DNA of 64,000 bases, taken from Fluviicola sp. (lineage in GTDB: Bacteria; Bacteroidota; Bacteroidia; Flavobacteriales_D; Crocinitomicaceae). The notes beneath the pieces are model-generated. The model was given only the letters and a program-made list of their open reading frames with translations, did no database searches and was not told the origin of the DNA. Below, piece after piece: positions 15,783 to 28,735 of the stretch. The DNA lies in the NCBI GenBank assembly GCA_002734065.2, contig NVXU02000025.1:124001-188000 (forward strand), given 5' to 3'. The number at the start of each line of letters is the position of its first letter. Position 1 is the stretch's first letter. The position numbers and the translations under genes are program-made.

Positions 15783-15895
15783 CCCCCCTCCGAAGGAGGA
15801 AGCACATACCTGTTAAAAAAATACTTGAAATTTAATTTGAGTTTATAAAATCATTATTTCTTGAACGCATACAACTATCAACATCTTCAGCTATC
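15783..15895 (+). repeat. C-rich REP-like repeat, copy A
   Basis: This is one of two direct copies of a unit of about 112 bp. It begins with a C-rich hairpin (CCTCC-GAA-GGAGG at 15787-15799), then CATACCTGTTAAAAAA, TTGAAATTTAATTTGAG, TTATTTCTTGA and TATCAACA-CTTCA-CTATC. The hairpin bases differ from copy B, but pairing is kept by matching changes on both arms. The 15697-16016 gap holds only copies A and B. Confidence 0.85.
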
Positions 15896-16017
15896 CTCCC
15901 CCTAGCCCCCTCCAAAGGGGGAAGCCCATACCTGTTAAAAAATCGTTTGAAATTTAATTTGAGTTTATAAACCTGTTATTTCTTGACTCCTTTCACTTAT
16001 CAACAACTTCACCTATC
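15893..16017 (+). repeat. C-rich REP-like repeat, copy B
   Basis: The direct repeat of copy A, with 10 extra C-rich bases in front. The hairpin is CCCCCT-CCAA-AGGGGG at 15906-15921. Bases 15893-15924 are an exact inverted copy of 16023-16054 (copy C), giving a 32-bp perfect inverted repeat with a 98-base spacer. It ends at the DUF559 stop codon. Confidence 0.9.
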
Positions 16018-16442
16018 TACTTCTTCCCCCTTTGGAGGGGGCTAGGGGGAGGATTTGATAAAGAAACATCGCTTTTCTCTCCTTTCAAACAGTAAATCGC
16101 ATGTGCAATCGCAGAATACACTTCTGCTATATTATTAATTACTTCTCCTTCTCCAAACCGAAGAAAGCTAAATCCTAATTCTTCCAATTTTCTTTGCCGT
16201 TTTGCATCATATTCTCCCTTATTAAAATGGGAGTTTCCATCAATCTCAATAATTAAGTTTATTTCTTGAGAAAGAAAATCAACGATGTAATTGTGAATAG
16301 GACGTTGCCTTTTGAACTTTACACCCATTTTATTTCTACATAGCAAAGCTCTCCAAAGATACTTTTCAGCTTTAGAAATAGAAGTTGTTCTTAGTTCTGT
16401 AGCGAAGCTTTTTAGGTGTTTGTTGTAGTGGTGGTTTTTCAT
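16017..16442 (-). CDS. DUF559-family (Vsr-like, PD-(D/E)XK) endonuclease-domain protein
   Basis: 141 residues. The fold resembles the very-short-patch-repair endonuclease group: the segments RQRPIHNYIVDF (about 64-75) and LIIEIDGNSHF (about 84-94) carry the usual acidic Asp and Glu/Asp positions, with a helix KRQRKLEELGF and strand FLRFGEGEV after them. The expected activity is DNA nicking or cleavage; nobody can read the target from sequence. The last 13 residues, NPPPSPLQRGKK and neighbours, are encoded by repeat copy C, so the natural C-terminus has been replaced or extended by the repeat. Copy D lies inverted 55 bases before its start, so the gene sits between inverted repeats. The sequence TTCTTATTTAAGTT just upstream also occurs twice before fic. 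Confidence 0.8.
   Translation of the reverse strand: MKNHHYNKHLKSFATELRTTSISKAEKYLWRALLCRNKMGVKFKRQRPIHNYIVDFLSQEINLIIEIDGNSHFNKGEYDAKRQRKLEELGFSFLRFGEGEVINNIAEVYSAIAHAIYCLKGEKSDVSLSNPPPSPLQRGKK
16023..16054 (-). repeat. C-rich repeat copy C, forming the 3' end of the DUF559 gene
   Basis: This is the exact inverse of 15893-15924, read on the minus strand as AATCCTCCCCCTAGCCCCC and onward, and translated as NPPPSPLQRGK. The stop codon follows directly, in the flanking sequence. Confidence 0.9.
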
Positions 16443-16444
16443 CT

Positions 16445-16458
16445 TTCTTATTTAAGTT
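16445..16458 (-). promoter_or_regulatory. Operator-like 14-mer before the DUF559 gene
   Basis: TTCTTATTTAAGTT (plus-strand reading) ends two bases before the DUF559 start codon and is identical to 17436-17449 and 17477-17490 in front of fic. It contains the small dyad CTTA-TT-TAAG, so it could bind a regulator dimer. Confidence 0.45.
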
Positions 16459-16496
16459 AAGAAAAAATGTACGATAAAAATTGATTGTGTAAATAA

Positions 16497-16567
16497 ATCC
16501 TCCCCCTCTGTCCCCCTCCAAAGGGGGAAGCCCATACCTGTTAAAAAAAATCGTTTGAAAATTTAAA
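16497..16567 (+). repeat. C-rich REP-like repeat, copy D
   Basis: It shares the C-rich hairpin and CCCATACCTGTTAAAAAA-TCGTTTGAAA with copy B, then diverges after TTTAAAA. It lies between the divergent DUF559 and lipoprotein genes. An antisense open frame across it is not a gene. Confidence 0.88.
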
Positions 16568-16639: not shown

Positions 16640-17425
16640 ATGGTCAAATTTTTATCCATTTTCAATCTGATTTTCCTTATTTCGTGTCAGTCTAATCACT
16701 CGATAATAAAGGAGCACGTCAAGATACAAGTCTATACATACGAACACGAAGGAGAAACAAAGGCATCTGCCATGCCAGAGCTTAAAAAAGCAAGTAATTT
16801 GATAGACTACGAACGAAGGTTTGAGTATCTTCTTATAAATGTGTCTGAAATTCACCTTTCTCAAAAATCAGAAAAAAGAAAAGAAATTTGGAGTTTATAC
16901 CCAGATACTATAAAGCTCAAGCGAAGCTATCTAAAGGAGTATGCCAAGGATGAAAAGTTGGTCAACTATTTTGAAAAATCAAGTGCCGCTATCATTAATC
17001 CTGCTATTGAAGCAACTGAGACCTACAGCGTGGATGAACTAATGGAAGTTGCTTCAAAATTCTTCTATTGCGACAAAGTTTTCCCTGATACGACTATCCA
17101 AACACATGTCTGTATCGGCTTAAATGGAGTCAGTGAAGCAAATTGGAGCAAGGATTATACATTGCTCGAAGCATTCTGCTACGAAGGCATTTTTTATGAC
17201 TTTGACAACGATACATCCCAAATTTATGAATCCTACAGTTCTGAGAGGATAGAAGCGTGTCAAAAACACAAAACATCGATTACAACCTTAGAAAAATATC
17301 TGGAAGATGTAAGAAAAGAACTATTCTATCGAATGAAGTCTGACCCTGTTTTAAAAAGAAAACTTTTGGAATATTACGAAAAAAACAAACCGAATCTTGC
17401 GTTTAAAGTCATCGAATCAACTTAA
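16640..17425 (+). CDS. Putative lipoprotein, unknown function
   Basis: 261 residues. The N-terminus MVKFLSIFNLIFLISC is a lipoprotein signal with acylated Cys16. The body is largely helical, rich in Glu, Lys and Tyr, with a few Cys (FFYCDKVF, HVCIGLNG, EAFCYEG) and a C-terminal coiled-looking helix that ends KVIEST. I recognise no family. It should sit in the envelope. It lies between the DUF559 element and fic, with no visible operon partner, and belongs to the accessory patch. Transcription may continue toward fic, since no terminator is visible, but the AT-rich dyads between them suggest independent control of fic. Confidence 0.7.
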   Translation: MVKFLSIFNLIFLISCQSNHSIIKEHVKIQVYTYEHEGETKASAMPELKKASNLIDYERRFEYLLINVSEIHLSQKSEKRKEIWSLYPDTIKLKRSYLKEYAKDEKLVNYFEKSSAAIINPAIEATETYSVDELMEVASKFFYCDKVFPDTTIQTHVCIGLNGVSEANWSKDYTLLEAFCYEGIFYDFDNDTSQIYESYSSERIEACQKHKTSITTLEKYLEDVRKELFYRMKSDPVLKRKLLEYYEKNKPNLAFKVIEST

Positions 17426-17435
17426 TTAGAAGGTT

Positions 17436-17536
17436 TTCTTATTTAAGTTTTTTTCATTTTTCTTAAATAGCAGCTATTCTTATTTAAGTTTTTTGTGTTT
17501 TTATTAAATAAGGGCTACCTTTACTTAAACGTTAAG
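17436..17536 (+). promoter_or_regulatory. Tandem AT-rich dyads before fic (candidate operator)
   Basis: Two tandem units of about 41 bp each contain TTCTTATTTAAG, a T-rich spacer and a partly complementary CTTAAATAG or ATTAAATAAG. A third dyad, CTTAA-ACG-TTAAG, lies at 17524-17536, seven bases before the fic ATG. The Fic protein has a C-terminal winged-helix-like region, so binding of its own product here is plausible but unproven. Confidence 0.5.
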
Positions 17537-17543
17537 AACAATT

Positions 17544-18668
17544 ATGAGAAATTTCCAGTCAGGAAGATACGTTAATCAAGGTAGGTATAAAAGTTTTCAG
17601 CCCGAAAAAATTAACCGCCAATGGTTCATTGATGATATGGAATTGTTAAGTCTGCTAGGTCAAGCTGACCGACAAATTGGACGTTTAGACATGTATTCTG
17701 AACACATCCCAAACATAGACTTGTTCATTAGTCTGCACGTTCTAAAAGAAGCAACTCAATCAAGCAAAATTGAAGGAACAAAAACAAACATAGAAGAAGC
17801 ATTGCTCAATAAAGAGGATGTAAAAGAGGAGAAAAGAGATGATTGGGAAGAAGTCCAAAACTACATTTCAGCGTTAAATAGTGCTGTTGAAAGTTTAAAA
17901 AAACTTCCTTTTTCTTCACGATTAATAAAAAAAGCGCATCAAATATTAATGCAAGGAGTCCGTGGTCAACAGAAATTACCTGGCGAATTTAGAATTAGTC
18001 AAAATTGGATTGGGGGAGCGTCAATTAACGACTCAATTTTTGTTCCTCCAAATCATGTTGAAATAGATGACCTTATGGGGGATATAGAAAACTTTGCGCA
18101 TAACCAAGATTTTTACTTTCCGGATATTTTGAAAATTGCGTTAATACATTATCAATTTGAAACGATTCATCCTTTTTTAGACGGAAATGGACGTGTCGGT
18201 CGTTTAATGATTACTTTATACCTTGTTGAAAAAGGCATACTCAAAAAACCTATTTTGTACCTTTCTGATTTCTTTGAACGCAATAGAACGCTATATTATG
18301 ATAACTTAATGAGAGTCCGTGAAAAAAATGACATAAAGCAATGGTTTAAATTTTTTCTTGTTGGCATTGTTGAAACAGCAAAAAGCGGAATTGAAACATT
18401 TGAAAGTATTCTTAAACTTCAAAAAACCGTTGAGAACAAAGCTAAAACTTTAGGTAGTCGAACAAAGAATGCATTAATAGTAACAAACTATCTCTTTGAA
18501 AGACCAATGGTAGATTCACAAAAAGTTAAAGAATTAACTGGATTGTCCTTCCCTTCTGTTTACAAACTTATTGATGAGCTAGAAACCTTAAAAATAATTA
18601 AAGAAATAACAGGAGCCAAAAGAGGTAAACTTTATGTCTTTGAAGATTATATTAATTTGTTCAATTAA
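17544..18668 (+). CDS. Fic family protein (predicted AMP-transferase) with C-terminal HTH
   Basis: 374 residues. The Fic core motif HPFLDGNGRVGR is complete at residues 209-220, including the catalytic His209 and the nucleotide-binding GNGR. The N-terminal part carries SSKIEGT near residue 73, matching the inhibitory (S/T)xxxE(G/N) helix, so the enzyme should be self-inhibited with the inhibitor on the same chain (class II). The C-terminal 80 residues (KVKELTGLSFPSVYKLIDEL) look like a winged helix for DNA binding. Fic enzymes attach AMP to Tyr/Thr/Ser of target proteins; the target here is unknown. Such proteins occur both alone and in toxin-antitoxin-like pairs, and no partner gene is adjacent. 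The next gene starts nine bases after the stop. Confidence 0.92.
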   Translation: MRNFQSGRYVNQGRYKSFQPEKINRQWFIDDMELLSLLGQADRQIGRLDMYSEHIPNIDLFISLHVLKEATQSSKIEGTKTNIEEALLNKEDVKEEKRDDWEEVQNYISALNSAVESLKKLPFSSRLIKKAHQILMQGVRGQQKLPGEFRISQNWIGGASINDSIFVPPNHVEIDDLMGDIENFAHNQDFYFPDILKIALIHYQFETIHPFLDGNGRVGRLMITLYLVEKGILKKPILYLSDFFERNRTLYYDNLMRVREKNDIKQWFKFFLVGIVETAKSGIETFESILKLQKTVENKAKTLGSRTKNALIVTNYLFERPMVDSQKVKELTGLSFPSVYKLIDELETLKIIKEITGAKRGKLYVFEDYINLFN

Positions 18669-25788: not shown

Positions 25789-28735
25789 AAACCACATTCA
25801 CTATCCTACCCGGAACAACAATCACCTTTTTCGGTGCGTTGCCATCCAACCATTTAATTGCGACTTCGTGAGCAAGAACTGCCGCCTCTACGTCTTTTGG
25901 GTTCATTTCTGTCGGTAATTCTATCTTAAAACGCATTTTACCATTGATAGAAACAGGATAATTGATATTTGCCTCTACCAAATGCTTCTCATCGAAAGTT
26001 GGGAAAGTTGCATAACTTAAAGTACCTGCTTCGTTTCCTAATTTCACCCATAATTCTTCTGAAATATGTGGCGCATAAGGAGAAAGCATAATCACTAACT
26101 CTTGCAAAATTGCTTTGTTATTGCATTTTTGCTCGTTGAGTTCGTTGACACAAATCATAAAGGCAGAGACGCCTGTATTGAAAGAATAACGTTCTAAATC
26201 GTCAGTGATTTTCTTGATGGTCTTGTGCAAGGTTTTCAACGCGTCTTTTGATGGTGTATTCTCGTCCAAAGCAACATTTCCTTGCTCGTTGTGGAACAAT
26301 CGCCACAGTTTTCTTAAGAAATTATGCACGCCATTGATTCCTTTGGTGTCCCAAGGTTTGCTTTGCTCCAAAGGACCGAGAAACATTTCGTACATGCGCA
26401 AAGTGTCTGCTCCGAATTGCTCTACTAGCTCGTCTGGCGTCTGCACATTGAATTTAGATTTAGACATTTTCTCAACCTCGTGACCGCAGATGTAAGTTCC
26501 ATCGTCTTCGAGGATGAATTCAGCATCTTTGTATTCTTCACGCCAGTTTTTGAACGCTTCGATGTCGAGAATATCGTTATCGACCATTGAAATGTCGGCG
26601 TGGATAGATAAAATGTGATTATTGAACCATTTATATTCTACACCAAATTTCATTTTTAAGGTTTCAACAATTTCATTTTTTACAGCTCTAAAACTGGAGT
26701 TTAATTCCAACGATACTTTATTATTTCTTTTTGCCTCGTTATATTTCTCTATAATAGCTGCTTTCGAGTTCGAAATAAATACTAAGGGGAATTCACCTTC
26801 GTTTTCTTGTGAGTTTTCATGTATTATTCTACTTAAAAAAAGTTTTTTAACAAAACTACTTCTTCCCAAAATCATTCCTTGGTTAATCATCTTCTGAAAA
26901 GGCTCATCGAAAGGAATGAATCCCATATCGTGTAAGAATTTTGTCCAAAAGCGAGAATAAAGTAGATGTCCCGTTGCGTGTTCAGAACCACCGATGTATA
27001 AATCGACGTTCTTCCAATAATCAACCTTCTCTTTGCTTACAAAAGCATCCTCATTATTCGGATCCATGTAGCGCAAGAAATACCAAGAACTTCCTGCCCA
27101 ACCTGGCATGGTGTTAAATTCCATTCTGTCGCCTTCAAAATGATTCCAAGCTTCTTTTTTTGCTCGTGCTAAAGGCGGCTCGCCATCTTCCGTTGGTAAA
27201 TATTTATCCACCTCTGGCAAAGTGATTGGCAAGTCTTTATCGTCCACCAAATAAGGTGTTTCGCCTTTGTAATAAACAGGAAACGGTTCTCCCCAATATC
27301 TTTGTCGTGAGAAAACAGCATCTCTCAGTCGGTAATTCGTTTCGCCTTTGCCTAAATCGCGTTGTTGGATCTCGTAAATCGCCAATTTCATCGCTTTTTT
27401 GACTTTTAAATCGTTCAAAAAGTCAGAATTGGTAATTATACCTTCTTTTTCAGTATAAGCACCTTCGGAGATGTCAATGTCTTTAAAAATGTTCTTTATT
27501 TCGATGTTAAAATGCTTGGCAAAATCCCAATCACGTTGGTCGCCACAAGGAACTGCCATTACTGCACCTGTTCCGTAGGATGCAAGGACGTAATCACCAA
27601 TCCACACTGGAATTTTTTCTCCAGAGAATGGGTGAACAGCATAAGCACCTGTAAATTGACCCGAGATGTTTTTCACATCTGCCTGTCGGTCTCTTTCTGA
27701 TTTTAATGATGCTTCCTTTTTGTAATTCTCAACGGCATCTTTGTATTCTGTGGTTGTAATTTCATCAACAAAAGGATGTTCTGGAGCCAAAACCATGAAA
27801 GAAACGCCGAAAATGGTGTCTGGGCGAGTGGTGAATACTTCGACCACACTATTATGATTCTCAAGTTCAAATTTCACAGATGCGCCGACTGATTTTCCAA
27901 TCCAATTGCGTTGTTGGTCTTTGATAGAATCTGTCCAATCGATGGTGTCTAATCCTGTCAATAAACGTTCTGCATAAGCTTTGATTCTCATCGACCACTG
28001 ACGCATTAACTTCTGTTGCACAGGATGCCCACCTCTTTCTGAGACTCCGTTTACAATTTCATCGTTGGCCAAAACGGTACCCAATGCAGGACACCAGTTT
28101 ACCCACGAGTCAGCGAGGTAAGCCAGTCTATATTCTTGTAAAATGTGTTCTCTTTTCTCTTCAGAATAGGATTTCCATTCTTTTGCAGAAAAAACATCTT
28201 CTTTATCTGTGCAAGCATTGACTTTCTCGTTGCCATTGCTTTCAAATTCTGCAATTAACTTGTCAATTGACTCTGCTTTATCGTTATTATTGTCGTAATA
28301 AGCATTAAATAATTGCTTAAAAATCCATTGTGTCCATTTGTAGTATTCTGGAGAAGAAGTTCTCACTTCTCTGTCCCAATCGAATGAGAAACCAATCTGA
28401 TCCATTTGCCCACGATAACGAGCGATGTTTTCTTTGGTTGTAATACTTGGGTGCTGACCTGTTTGAATAGCGTATTGTTCTGCGGGTAAACCAAAAGAAT
28501 CGTAACCCATTGGATGCAGAACGTTGAATCCTTTTAAACGTTTGTAACGTGCATAAATATCTGACGCAATGTAGCCAAGAGGATGCCCAACATGCAAGCC
28601 TGCGCCAGAAGGATAAGGAAACATGTCCAATACATAAAACTTTGGTTTGCTTGAAAAGTCTTCCGCACGAAAAGTCTTATTATCCGCCCAAAATTTTCTC
28701 CAATTCTCCTCGATTTCTCTAAAATTATACTCCAT
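25784..28735 (-). CDS. leuS: Leucyl-tRNA synthetase
   Basis: 983 residues from the ATG at 28735; the ATG at 28741 (MTMEYNF) is also possible, whereas the first ATG at 28759 overlaps the predicted -7 element and is rejected. The class I HIGH motif is HVGH (residues 48-51). The CP1 editing domain includes TTRPDTIFG and the GTGAVMAVPCGDQRD segment. The KMSKS motif lies near residue 755. The protein is longer than the E. coli enzyme because of insertions near residues 160-200 and 640-740, the latter next to the leucine-specific region; such insertions are usual in Bacteroidota. It loads leucine on tRNA-Leu. It is divergent from the sensor kinase gene. Confidence 0.97.
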   Translation of the reverse strand: MEYNFREIEENWRKFWADNKTFRAEDFSSKPKFYVLDMFPYPSGAGLHVGHPLGYIASDIYARYKRLKGFNVLHPMGYDSFGLPAEQYAIQTGQHPSITTKENIARYRGQMDQIGFSFDWDREVRTSSPEYYKWTQWIFKQLFNAYYDNNNDKAESIDKLIAEFESNGNEKVNACTDKEDVFSAKEWKSYSEEKREHILQEYRLAYLADSWVNWCPALGTVLANDEIVNGVSERGGHPVQQKLMRQWSMRIKAYAERLLTGLDTIDWTDSIKDQQRNWIGKSVGASVKFELENHNSVVEVFTTRPDTIFGVSFMVLAPEHPFVDEITTTEYKDAVENYKKEASLKSERDRQADVKNISGQFTGAYAVHPFSGEKIPVWIGDYVLASYGTGAVMAVPCGDQRDWDFAKHFNIEIKNIFKDIDISEGAYTEKEGIITNSDFLNDLKVKKAMKLAIYEIQQRDLGKGETNYRLRDAVFSRQRYWGEPFPVYYKGETPYLVDDKDLPITLPEVDKYLPTEDGEPPLARAKKEAWNHFEGDRMEFNTMPGWAGSSWYFLRYMDPNNEDAFVSKEKVDYWKNVDLYIGGSEHATGHLLYSRFWTKFLHDMGFIPFDEPFQKMINQGMILGRSSFVKKLFLSRIIHENSQENEGEFPLVFISNSKAAIIEKYNEAKRNNKVSLELNSSFRAVKNEIVETLKMKFGVEYKWFNNHILSIHADISMVDNDILDIEAFKNWREEYKDAEFILEDDGTYICGHEVEKMSKSKFNVQTPDELVEQFGADTLRMYEMFLGPLEQSKPWDTKGINGVHNFLRKLWRLFHNEQGNVALDENTPSKDALKTLHKTIKKITDDLERYSFNTGVSAFMICVNELNEQKCNNKAILQELVIMLSPYAPHISEELWVKLGNEAGTLSYATFPTFDEKHLVEANINYPVSINGKMRFKIELPTEMNPKDVEAAVLAHEVAIKWLDGNAPKKVIVVPGRIVNVVL

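What the first reader, a model, noticed from the sequence alone, without database searches (positions are those of the whole stretch)
15783..16567. DUF559 nuclease gene embedded in a family of C-rich REP-like hairpin repeats (REPtron-like unit)
Four copies of a repeat lie in 800 bases. Two (C and D) are inverted and bracket a Vsr-like nuclease gene, and copy C forms its last codons and so its C-terminus (NPPPSPLQRGK). The repeat core is a small hairpin (CCCCCT-CCAA-AGGGGG); copy A keeps pairing by compensatory changes (CCTCC-GAA-GGAGG), so the structure matters. This parallels REP sequences spread by a resident Y1 transposase (RAYT), with a different nuclease. I know that such repeats commonly accompany DUF559 genes in this phylum, but I know of no described mechanism.
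Basis: partly seen in the sequence, partly recalled or inferred. Interest (0 to 1): 0.8.

Follow-up and report, generated by a model that had tools for sequence, protein, structure and literature searches.

The report
Nuclease gene riding triplex DNA repeats
A small bacterial nuclease gene and a family of short, triple-helix-capable DNA repeats travel together in several bacterial phyla, even landing inside essential genes, which points to an undescribed kind of mobile DNA and gives a known class of mystery repeats a likely enzyme partner.

Summary
Four repeat copies lie around a PF04480 (DUF559, Vsr-like) gene; the genome holds 43 copies (control pattern 0), 32 of them in inverted doublets, and one DUF559 gene. 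The association generalises. C-rich hairpins lie within 350 bp of 82 of 88 DUF559 genes from several phyla (both sides 52), against 19 and 0 of 307 control windows. In 296 Bacteroidota and 199 Acidobacteriota genomes, those rich in the hairpin nearly always carry DUF559 (22 of 23; 9 of 9). Y1 (RAYT-type) genes show no link in the genus and a weaker one in wider sets. Repeat type follows the DUF559 tree across phyla. DUF559 with such repeats sits in frame inside leuS, metH, hsdR and methylase genes of relatives; one leuS site is empty here, holds a solo repeat in a congener and cassettes elsewhere.

The unit is more than a hairpin: an upstream arm mirrors the stem under the purine-motif triplex code, as in published intrastrand-triplex (PIT/TM) repeats, whose authors found no mobility gene. 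E. coli ycjD (DUF559) also lies beside such a repeat. I infer a nuclease-driven, homing-like mobile element; cutting was not tested.

The parts
16017..16442 (-). DUF559 (PF04480) Vsr-like endonuclease gene, 141 aa; its last codons are read from repeat copy C
   Evidence: ORF; PF04480 E 1.7e-29; profile of the family matches PDB 3hrl (E 6.9e-32) and 3r3p (E 0.0011)
15784..15799 (+). Repeat copy A, decayed: shifted hairpin CCTCC-GAA-GGAGG, C-rich head lost
15894..15921 (+). Repeat copy B: head TCCTCCCCC (15894-15902), linker TAG (15903-15905), Y arm CCCCCT, loop CCAA, R arm AGGGGG (15906-15921)
   Evidence: head is the mirror of the arm (rule tested)
16026..16053 (-). Repeat copy C; on the + strand CCCCC-TTTGGAGGGGG-CTA-GGGGGAGGA, i.e. 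hairpin plus third strand 16045-16053; overlaps the 3' end of the gene
16498..16527 (+). Repeat copy D: head TCCTCCCCC (16498-16506), linker TCTGT, hairpin 16512-16527; upstream of the gene, head towards the gene
15893..16056 (.). B-C doublet with heads outward, the genome's commonest form of the repeat (16 such convergent pairs)
15784..16017 (+). Longer direct repeat (15784-15895 and 15906-16017, 112 nt, 82%) of which A and B are the left ends
27509..28132 (-). Part of leuS: the insertion site that holds repeats or DUF559 cassettes in relatives is empty here
   Evidence: (G000:C6:151509-152132; the window starts at C6:124001)

Best explanation
The DUF559 gene and the repeats are two parts of one mobile genetic element. 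The repeats are short, non-autonomous units able to fold, on their purine-rich strand, into a hairpin plus a third strand (an intrastrand purine-motif triplex). The DUF559 protein is the cognate nuclease. Shown by comparison: the physical linkage, co-occurrence between genomes, co-inheritance of nuclease clade and repeat type, DUF559 with repeats inserted in frame in host genes, and empty, solo and full states of one leuS site. Inferred: the protein recognises the folded unit, or the site to be invaded, when the DNA is single-stranded or supercoiled, and nicks or cuts it. A Vsr-like nuclease is not known to make a covalent protein-DNA joint (recalled), so it probably does not join strands itself; host recombination and repair, guided by the repeated units, then copies a unit or a whole cassette into the break. 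This would be homing or gene conversion rather than cut-and-paste transposition. It would explain why the gene sits between units with the heads mostly inward, why no clear target duplication was found, and why repeat copies outnumber DUF559 genes.
For: Linkage: C-rich hairpin within 350 bp in 25 of 30 DUF559 loci of the order (2 of 20 Y1 loci); 82 of 88 in a second set against 19 of 307 control windows, both sides 52 of 88 against 0 of 307; 27 of 30 and 16 of 19 in two more sets (4 loci recur between sets). Co-occurrence: genus, 6 or more copies in 7 of 10 DUF559+ against 2 of 24 DUF559- genomes, p 0.0007; Y1 p 0.70. Bacteroidota, 5 or more copies: 22 of 23 have strong DUF559 against 104 of 273, p 3e-8. 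Acidobacteriota: 9 of 9 against 10 of 190, and 7 of 7 without the two genomes reached because of DUF559. Repeat type on the DUF559 tree: 13 changes against 31.9 shuffled, 0 of 200 as low, with clades that cross phyla. In-frame insertion in leuS, metH, hsdR, hsdM, type ISP and methylase genes; of 16 such loci, 15 have a hairpin on at least one side and 9 on both. leuS: empty in own genome, solo unit in congener G030, cassette in 6 of 28 loci read and a decayed one in G250. Triplex rule: heads of 58 all-pyrimidine arms fit the mirror of their own arm at 0.883 against 0.754 permuted, 0 of 1000. A DUF559 protein of Caulobacter is responsible for an SOS response in cells without a methyltransferase (PMC12907096, passages). 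S. meliloti DUF559 lies between a full doublet and a truncated inverted copy of it.
Against: No cutting, binding or movement was measured. Two DUF559-negative congeners are rich in repeats (G020, 25 copies; G025, 9), as is G104 (7) and, less so, G336 (3) in the phylum, so repeats persist without the gene or spread by other means. Three DUF559+ congeners have 0-2 copies (G016, G019, G021). Y1 presence also correlates with copy number over all 99 relatives by rank test (p 0.0085; DUF559 3e-7), though not by the 6-copy table (p 0.30). Clean target-site boundaries were not obtained: S. meliloti and E. coli comparisons showed internal deletions or gene replacement. The leuS-borne DUF559 are mostly one clade, so old vertical inheritance with losses can explain part of that pattern. 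One of six repeat types (E) is not clustered on the tree. Holder et al. report no support for stable triplex in vivo by DMS footprinting (PMC4666352, section 20). Genomes in the Fisher tests are not independent by descent.
Confidence: 0.6

Rival explanations
1. DUF559 is a passenger: the repeats are moved by another enzyme (a Y1/RAYT transposase or a DDE element in trans) and the DUF559 gene was merely captured between two repeats, which then carry it.
For: DUF559-free genomes with many copies exist. The own genome has one weak Y1 match, about 960 bp from a repeat copy. Y1 presence correlates with copy number by rank test in other genera of the family (p 0.015) and over all 99 relatives (p 0.0085).
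Against: Y1 presence is not linked to copy number in the genus (p 0.70) nor by the 6-copy table over all 99 (p 0.30), where DUF559 is (p 0.00014), and 18 of 20 Y1 loci have no such hairpin. A captured passenger would not be expected to be the same family in several phyla with repeat type tracking its tree.
Confidence: 0.17
2. DUF559 is a host maintenance nuclease that resolves or trims triplex/hairpin obstacles; the gene sits among repeats because repeats attract it or regulate it.
For: Such repeats are reported to be unstable, with small deletions (PMC4666352, section 20), and S. meliloti strains show internal deletions of a doublet.
Against: Presence is patchy within a genus, the gene lies in frame inside unrelated host genes, and clades cross phyla: this is the pattern of a mobile gene, not a housekeeping one.
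Confidence: 0.12
3. The repeats act only in RNA or transcription (terminators, structured RNA such as Rfam whalefall-1) and the linkage to DUF559 is a by-product of mobile-gene neighbourhoods.
For: Three window copies and several others match Rfam RF01762 below its cut-off.
Against: Units occur inside coding genes in frame, and the mirror rule is a DNA-triplex rule. Control windows in the same neighbourhoods rarely have them.
Confidence: 0.06
4. The mirror-symmetric arm reflects G-quadruplex folding or direct protein reading of two half-sites, not a triplex (compatible with the mobile-element reading).
For: The purine strand of copy C (GGAGGGGG-CTA-GGGGGAGG) has four G runs.
Against: In accepted placements arm T meets head A or T in 356 of 375 cases and not C or G, the triplex code (G.G-C; A.A-T or T.A-T); a quadruplex would not need it. 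The placement score treats A and T as equal, so this table leans towards the rule. A related E. coli unit forms a purine-motif triplex in vitro by CD and NMR (PMC4666352).
Confidence: 0.25

Closest known systems
Intrastrand triplex motifs (PIT elements; TM_ECO of Holder et al. 2015, PMC4666352)
   Same: Same architecture: Y arm, loop, R arm, short second loop (TTA or CCG there; CTA, TTA and others here), second R-rich arm; sometimes in inverted pairs; many copies, uneven between close relatives. The full TM_ECO pattern starts 168 bp after the ycjD stop in MG1655; its hairpin part alone is in 6 of 233 loci fetched by then, all of them DUF559 loci.
   Different: The window unit has a shorter stem (6 bp) and different letters. 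A word search of the paper finds no mention of DUF559 or endonuclease, and it reports no mobility gene near TM_ECO; the nuclease partner and cassette are the new part.
REP/REPIN elements with RAYT (Y1 HUH transposase) genes, REPtrons
   Same: Short palindromic units, mostly inverted doublets, dispersed in one genome, with a nuclease gene flanked by two inverse copies.
   Different: Partner is a DUF559 nuclease and not a Y1 protein; no GTAG tag; a third mirror arm is present.
CGTC-tagged REPs (Di Nocera et al. 2013, PMC3733652), described as lacking a dedicated transposase
   Same: REP-like doublets without a RAYT partner; found in alpha-Proteobacteria and Bacteroidetes among others.
   Different: Window units carry neither the CGTC/TGTC/CCTC tag nor the AT-starting 8-9 bp stem described there.
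Vsr-like homing endonucleases (PDB 3r3p, 'mobile intron protein')
   Same: Sequence relationship at E 0.0011; genes that occupy fixed sites in conserved host genes.
   Different: No intron or intein seen: the cassette stays in the protein, and it carries repeats that are dispersed on their own.
E. coli YcjD (NF007294 / PRK09767), DUF559
   Same: Same family, though the window protein (58.5 bits, E 6.4e-16) is far below that model's cut-off of 218; YcjD's last codons (SPSP) are also the Y arm of a degenerate repeat unit.
   Different: Lone gene at sapF-fabI, in 3361 of 5426 genomes by 80% cover of its 1-kb locus; no complete doublet around it in L197 or L234.

Membership tests
RAYT-REP (REPtron) | Partner gene is a Y1 HUH transposase | tested here: not met
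   Partner is PF04480; Y1 presence not linked to repeats in the genus (weaker rank correlation in wider sets) and Y1 loci rarely have the hairpins (2 of 20)
RAYT-REP (REPtron) | GTAG tag at one end of the palindrome | tested here: not met
   Units begin (A/G)TCCTCCCCC and mostly end in AAG or AAA
RAYT-REP (REPtron) | Dispersed palindromes in inverted pairs, partner gene between inverse copies | tested here: met
   32 of 43 copies in 16 convergent pairs; gene between C and D
CGTC REP | CGTC/TGTC/CCTC tag followed by a stem that starts with AT, CCA tail | tested here: not met
   Sequences against the description in PMC3733652
Intrastrand triplex motif (PIT/TM) | Three consecutive blocks obeying the purine-motif code | tested here: met
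   Own unit 9 of 9 by the A/T rule (reading); family-wide permutation tests
Intrastrand triplex motif (PIT/TM) | Triplex actually forms | not testable with these tools
   Published in vitro for TM_ECO (PMC4666352)
DUF559 / Vsr-like endonuclease | PF04480 above cut-off and conserved acidic residues | tested here: met
   102.3 bits against 20.6; invariant E26, D55, E66, D68, D79 in 44 sequences, H72 nearly; which of them are catalytic was not tested
Homing endonuclease element | Filled and empty alleles at a fixed conserved site | tested here: met
   leuS site, between species, not within one
Homing endonuclease element | Carried by a self-splicing intron or intein | tested here: not met
   Cassettes are read through in frame between the two host-gene halves; no splicing domain among the matches for the 20 host-gene parts scanned
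DDE transposon / MITE | Target-site duplication | tested here: inconclusive
   No clean empty site at DNA level

The most novel reading that the evidence does not exclude
DUF559 nucleases are the missing partner of intrastrand-triplex (PIT/TM) repeats across bacteria, including E. coli, and together they form a class of mobile element that uses a triplex-forming unit as its recognition end and a Vsr-like nuclease with host repair instead of a transposase, able to lodge in frame in essential genes.
Probability: 0.5. Interest if true: 0.93.

Novelty: categorically new. Interest (0 to 1): 0.86.

Why it matters
Abundant intrastrand-triplex repeats have been described without a mobility gene or function; the 2015 paper says its authors never found transposase or integrase remnants near TM_ECO sites. 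Tying such repeats to one nuclease family makes their origin testable, including in E. coli K-12. It would add a non-HUH counterpart to RAYT-REP systems, offer a natural system in which DNA triplexes may be recognised by a protein, and explain many 'DUF559' genes and odd in-frame insertions (PSPQPSPSGRG-type stretches) in annotated proteins.

Tried and rejected
Plain RAYT-REP reading: not supported (rank correlations for Y1 in wider sets are told above). Compensatory evolution of copy A: rejected, one-sided change. CGTC-REP identity: rejected on tag and stem. Clean empty sites for target duplications: sought in S. meliloti/S. medicae pSymB and at E. coli sapF-fabI; only internal deletions, divergence or gene replacement were seen. 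Rfam RNA reading: matches below cut-off only. Defence-system reading: PADLOC and NCBIfam give only weak matches to defence models for the proteins scanned. In print: ten searches combining DUF559, ycjD, REP, palindromic, inverted repeat, triplex, REPIN and related words listed nothing on the association; several lists were capped (for example 15 of 2,077), I opened five papers, and the library is open-access only. Hoyne et al. 2000 (PIT elements) is known to me only as cited in PMC4666352.

Choices that could bias: the C-rich hairpin rule was set after seeing the first loci, used with no G in the arm and slightly wider (one G, loop to 8); the control was held to the same rule as its set, searches had no control of their own. 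The search for related loci kept the best 80 of 561 relatives, itself a capped list. One search used 88 of 89 loci (one had too little flank). Four loci recur between sets (L037=L128, L165=L230, L138=L292, L144=L296). The unit's orientation was set by C content, and the permutation control shares that choice. One search labelled 63 of 95 rows; 32 rows were left out of the count. Loci are the top-scoring ones, so the 12 of 49 in-frame share is not an unbiased rate. One search read 29 of the 36 genomes, one of them without success.

Full report
1. What is there. The four copies, their orientations and the DUF559 gene are as reported. The unit reads, on its pyrimidine strand, head TCCTCCCCC, linker (TAG or TCTGT), CCCCCT-CCAA-AGGGGG, then AAG. 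The genome (3.49 Mb, 62 contigs) has 43 copies against 0 for the reversed pattern; 32 lie in 16 convergent pairs with heads outward. One PF04480 match was found in it. At the gene the copies are the other way round: C and D have their heads towards the gene. Over the wider set the nearest unit has its head towards the DUF559 gene in 103 of 156 cases, p 7.7e-5. Copy A is degenerate, and its hairpin comes from a one-sided change.

2. Is it more than a local accident? In the order, 25 of 30 DUF559 loci have a C-rich hairpin within 350 bp, 17 on both sides; Y1 loci give 2 and 1 of 20. In 88 further loci, mostly Bacteroidota but also Acidobacteria, Marinimicrobia, Verrucomicrobia, Ignavibacteria, Proteobacteria, Cyanobacteria and Deinococcus, 82 have one and 52 have both sides, against 19 and 0 of 307 windows taken 1.4 and 2.6 kb away in the same loci. 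Two later sets give 27 of 30 (23 both) and 16 of 19 (13 both); four loci recur between sets. The hairpin letters differ from group to group. The CCCCTCCT hairpin was counted in the genomes of 22 of the loci: 19 have a match, 16 two or more, 8 five or more, control 0; two copies can be the gene's own flanks.

3. Between-genome test. Genus, 34 genomes: 6 or more copies in 7 of 10 with DUF559 and 2 of 24 without (p 0.0007); for Y1, 4 of 13 and 5 of 21 (p 0.70). In other genera of the family both DUF559 (p 0.03) and Y1 (p 0.015) correlate with copy number by rank test; over all 99 genomes DUF559 p 3e-7 and Y1 p 0.0085 by rank, 0.00014 and 0.30 by the 6-copy table. Bacteroidota, 296 genomes: CCCCTCCTT hairpins in 41, of which 39 have any PF04480 match and 36 a strong one (E at most 1e-15); with 5 or more copies, 22 of 23 strong against 104 of 273 (p 3e-8). 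Acidobacteriota, 199 genomes: 5 or more copies in 9, all 9 with strong DUF559, against 10 of 190; without the two genomes reached because of DUF559, 7 of 7 (p 9e-9). Eight DUF559 genes there that I picked from the capped listing are bracketed by hairpins at 53-246 bp; the gene of G451 has its listed hairpin 535 bp away on one side, and the rest could not be seen in the listing. Exceptions: G020 and G025 in the genus; G104 and G336 in the phylum, and G356, G366, G380 if only strong matches count; low-copy Acidobacteriota G415, G463, G537, G558, G593.

4. Mobility. Several of the best DUF559 matches lie inside long host frames: metH (L033, L214), leuS (L034, L035, L206, L209, L271, L273), hsdR (L211, L213, L217, L226, L286), hsdM (L225), type ISP (L204), DNA methylases (L205, L207), a TPR/SpoIIE-like gene (L043; this last name and some leuS/metH names are my reading of the sequence, the rest). 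Of 16 such loci checked, 15 have a C-rich hairpin by the rule on at least one side of DUF559 and 9 on both; L206 has none by the rule. Of 49 top-scoring loci, 12 have DUF559 with more than 110 aa on both sides. The leuS loop was read in 28 loci: six hold a full DUF559 cassette (G298, G149, G199, G127, G087, G052), G250 a decayed one, G030 of the window's genus one solo unit (CTTCCCCCTTTGGAGGGGG-ACT-GAGGGGGAGGAC) in frame, and 20, the window's own genome among them, neither; some of the 20 have loops lengthened by other sequence (for example G119, G266). The leuS-borne nucleases are mostly one clade (6 of 7 rows, 95/94), so this site may be held by a lineage specialised for it. In S. meliloti pSymB the DUF559 gene lies between a complete doublet and a truncated inverted copy of it (114-nt arms at 96%; an IS lies beyond the truncation). 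The closest congener, G014, has its DUF559 at the same sucB locus; sucB is 89% identical in DNA, DUF559 79% in protein, and the repeats around it differ in their middle parts.

5. Nuclease and repeat evolve together. Of 95 DUF559 domains, 63 could be given one of six repeat types from their flanks. The types need 13 changes on the tree; shuffles average 31.9, none of 200 as low; five types are clustered, type E (4 rows) is not. Several clades join Bacteroidota with Acidobacteria, Verrucomicrobia, Marinimicrobia or UBP6 rows, so type follows the nuclease more than the host. Short alignments leave many forks open.

6. The unit's structure. Writing out the flanks shows that the C-rich head is the mirror image of the hairpin's 5' arm, with arm C matched by C and arm T by A or T: CCCCTCCTT/AACCACCCC, CCTCTCCTT/AACCACTCC, CCCTCTCCTT/AACCTCACCC, CCCTCTCCCCG/GCCCCTCACCC, and here CCCCCTCC/CCTCCCCC. 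In many units a small extra hairpin replaces the short linker. Heads match the mirror of their own arm at 0.826 of positions, the direct arm at 0.729, mirrors of other arms at 0.715 and shuffled arms at 0.717; 111 of 218 units reach 8 of 9, against 31 for the direct arm; 33 units fit the direct arm better. With one unit per arm (97), 0.801 against 0.716 permuted; for 58 all-pyrimidine arms 0.883 against 0.754, 0 of 1000 permutations. In the accepted placements arm T meets A or T in 356 of 375 cases and arm C meets C in 797 of 852. Read on the purine strand this is the code of the antiparallel purine-motif triplex (code recalled; the class is described in PMC4666352). The placement score itself treats A and T as equal, so that table leans towards the rule; the permutation tests do not.

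7. What is known. Such intrastrand triplex repeats are published: TM_ECO, CCCTCNCCC-N3-6-GGGNGAGGG-N3-GGGNGAGGG, 3610 copies in 262 proteobacterial genomes, triplex in vitro by CD and NMR, no support for stable triplex in vivo, five inverted pairs among 23 copies in MG1655, and no mobility gene found nearby (PMC4666352: abstract, sections 15, 16, 18 and part 1 of 20, and passages). The E. coli unit next to ycjD is an exact TM_ECO; the S. meliloti units have this layout with a longer stem and do not match the exact pattern. In MG1655 the TM_ECO starts 168 bp after the ycjD stop, and the last codons of ycjD form a degenerate unit's Y arm, as in the window. ycjD's 1-kb locus is in 3361 of 5426 E. 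coli genomes at 80% cover; TM counts were not compared between ycjD+ and ycjD- strains. GTAG REPs have RAYTs, CGTC REPs apparently lack a transposase (PMC3733652: abstract and passages). Rfam's Whalefall-1 candidate RNA matches several units below its cut-off; its paper lists it as found only in whale-fall sequence (PMC2864571, passages). A DUF559 protein of Caulobacter is responsible for an SOS response in methyltransferase-less cells (PMC12907096, abstract start and passages). PMC4692102 (a word search only) mentions neither DUF559 nor endonuclease.

8. Verdict. The association of DUF559 with triplex-type repeats as a joint mobile cassette I hold at about 0.9; that the nuclease drives the movement at about 0.6; that the triplex itself is what it recognises at about 0.5. 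The last two are inferences. Of the known kinds tested, none fits: the RAYT test, the tag tests and the intron/intein test are not met. I file it as categorically new in kind while noting that it works like a REPtron.

Noticed in passing
L226 (hsdR of G359): A GIY-YIG domain (PF01541, E 2.1e-14) also lies inside the hsdR frame, upstream of the inserted DUF559; a second nuclease family may use the same kind of in-frame lodging.
   Followed up: no
window 15893-15925, 16022-16054, 16497-16531: Three repeat copies match Rfam RF01762 Whalefall-1 at 20-32 bits (cut-off 37); that candidate RNA has the same hairpin-linker-G-rich-arm layout and may be a DNA element.
   Followed up: partly
G000:C59:30028-30282 (L032): The genome's only Y1 match is a weak, short RAYT-like gene (1.2e-4) about 960 bp from a single repeat copy at C59:29055.
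   Followed up: partly
G020 and G025 (same genus): 25 and 9 repeat copies but no DUF559 and no Y1 match, at 99% completeness: candidates for recent loss of the partner gene or for spread in trans.
   Followed up: no
L242, L245, L247, L249 (leuS loops of G180, G153, G385, G270): Some DUF559-free leuS loops are lengthened by another palindrome-like stretch (GAGCG..GTCGAG / GAGCGAAGTTGAAG), so this loop may receive other repeat families too.
   Followed up: no
window 17421-17494: Two 33-nt direct repeats 41 bp apart (start to start) at the end of the 261-aa gene, sharing TTTCTTATTTAAGTT with the DUF559 upstream region (16444-16458).
   Followed up: no
window 17544-18668: Fic/DOC family gene (PF13784, PF02661) two genes away from the DUF559 unit.
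   Followed up: no
E. coli sapF-fabI: In the four ycjD-negative E. coli records read, ycjD's place after sapF is taken by efflux genes: two alternative gene contents at one site.
   Followed up: partly
L280 against L275 (S. meliloti pSymB): A doublet has lost one unit by deletion between its repeats in Rm41, a strain-level example of the instability reported for TM repeats.
   Followed up: partly
G059:C1:251394-252433: Four repeat cores in the same orientation about 340 bp apart, a possible larger tandem array.
   Followed up: no
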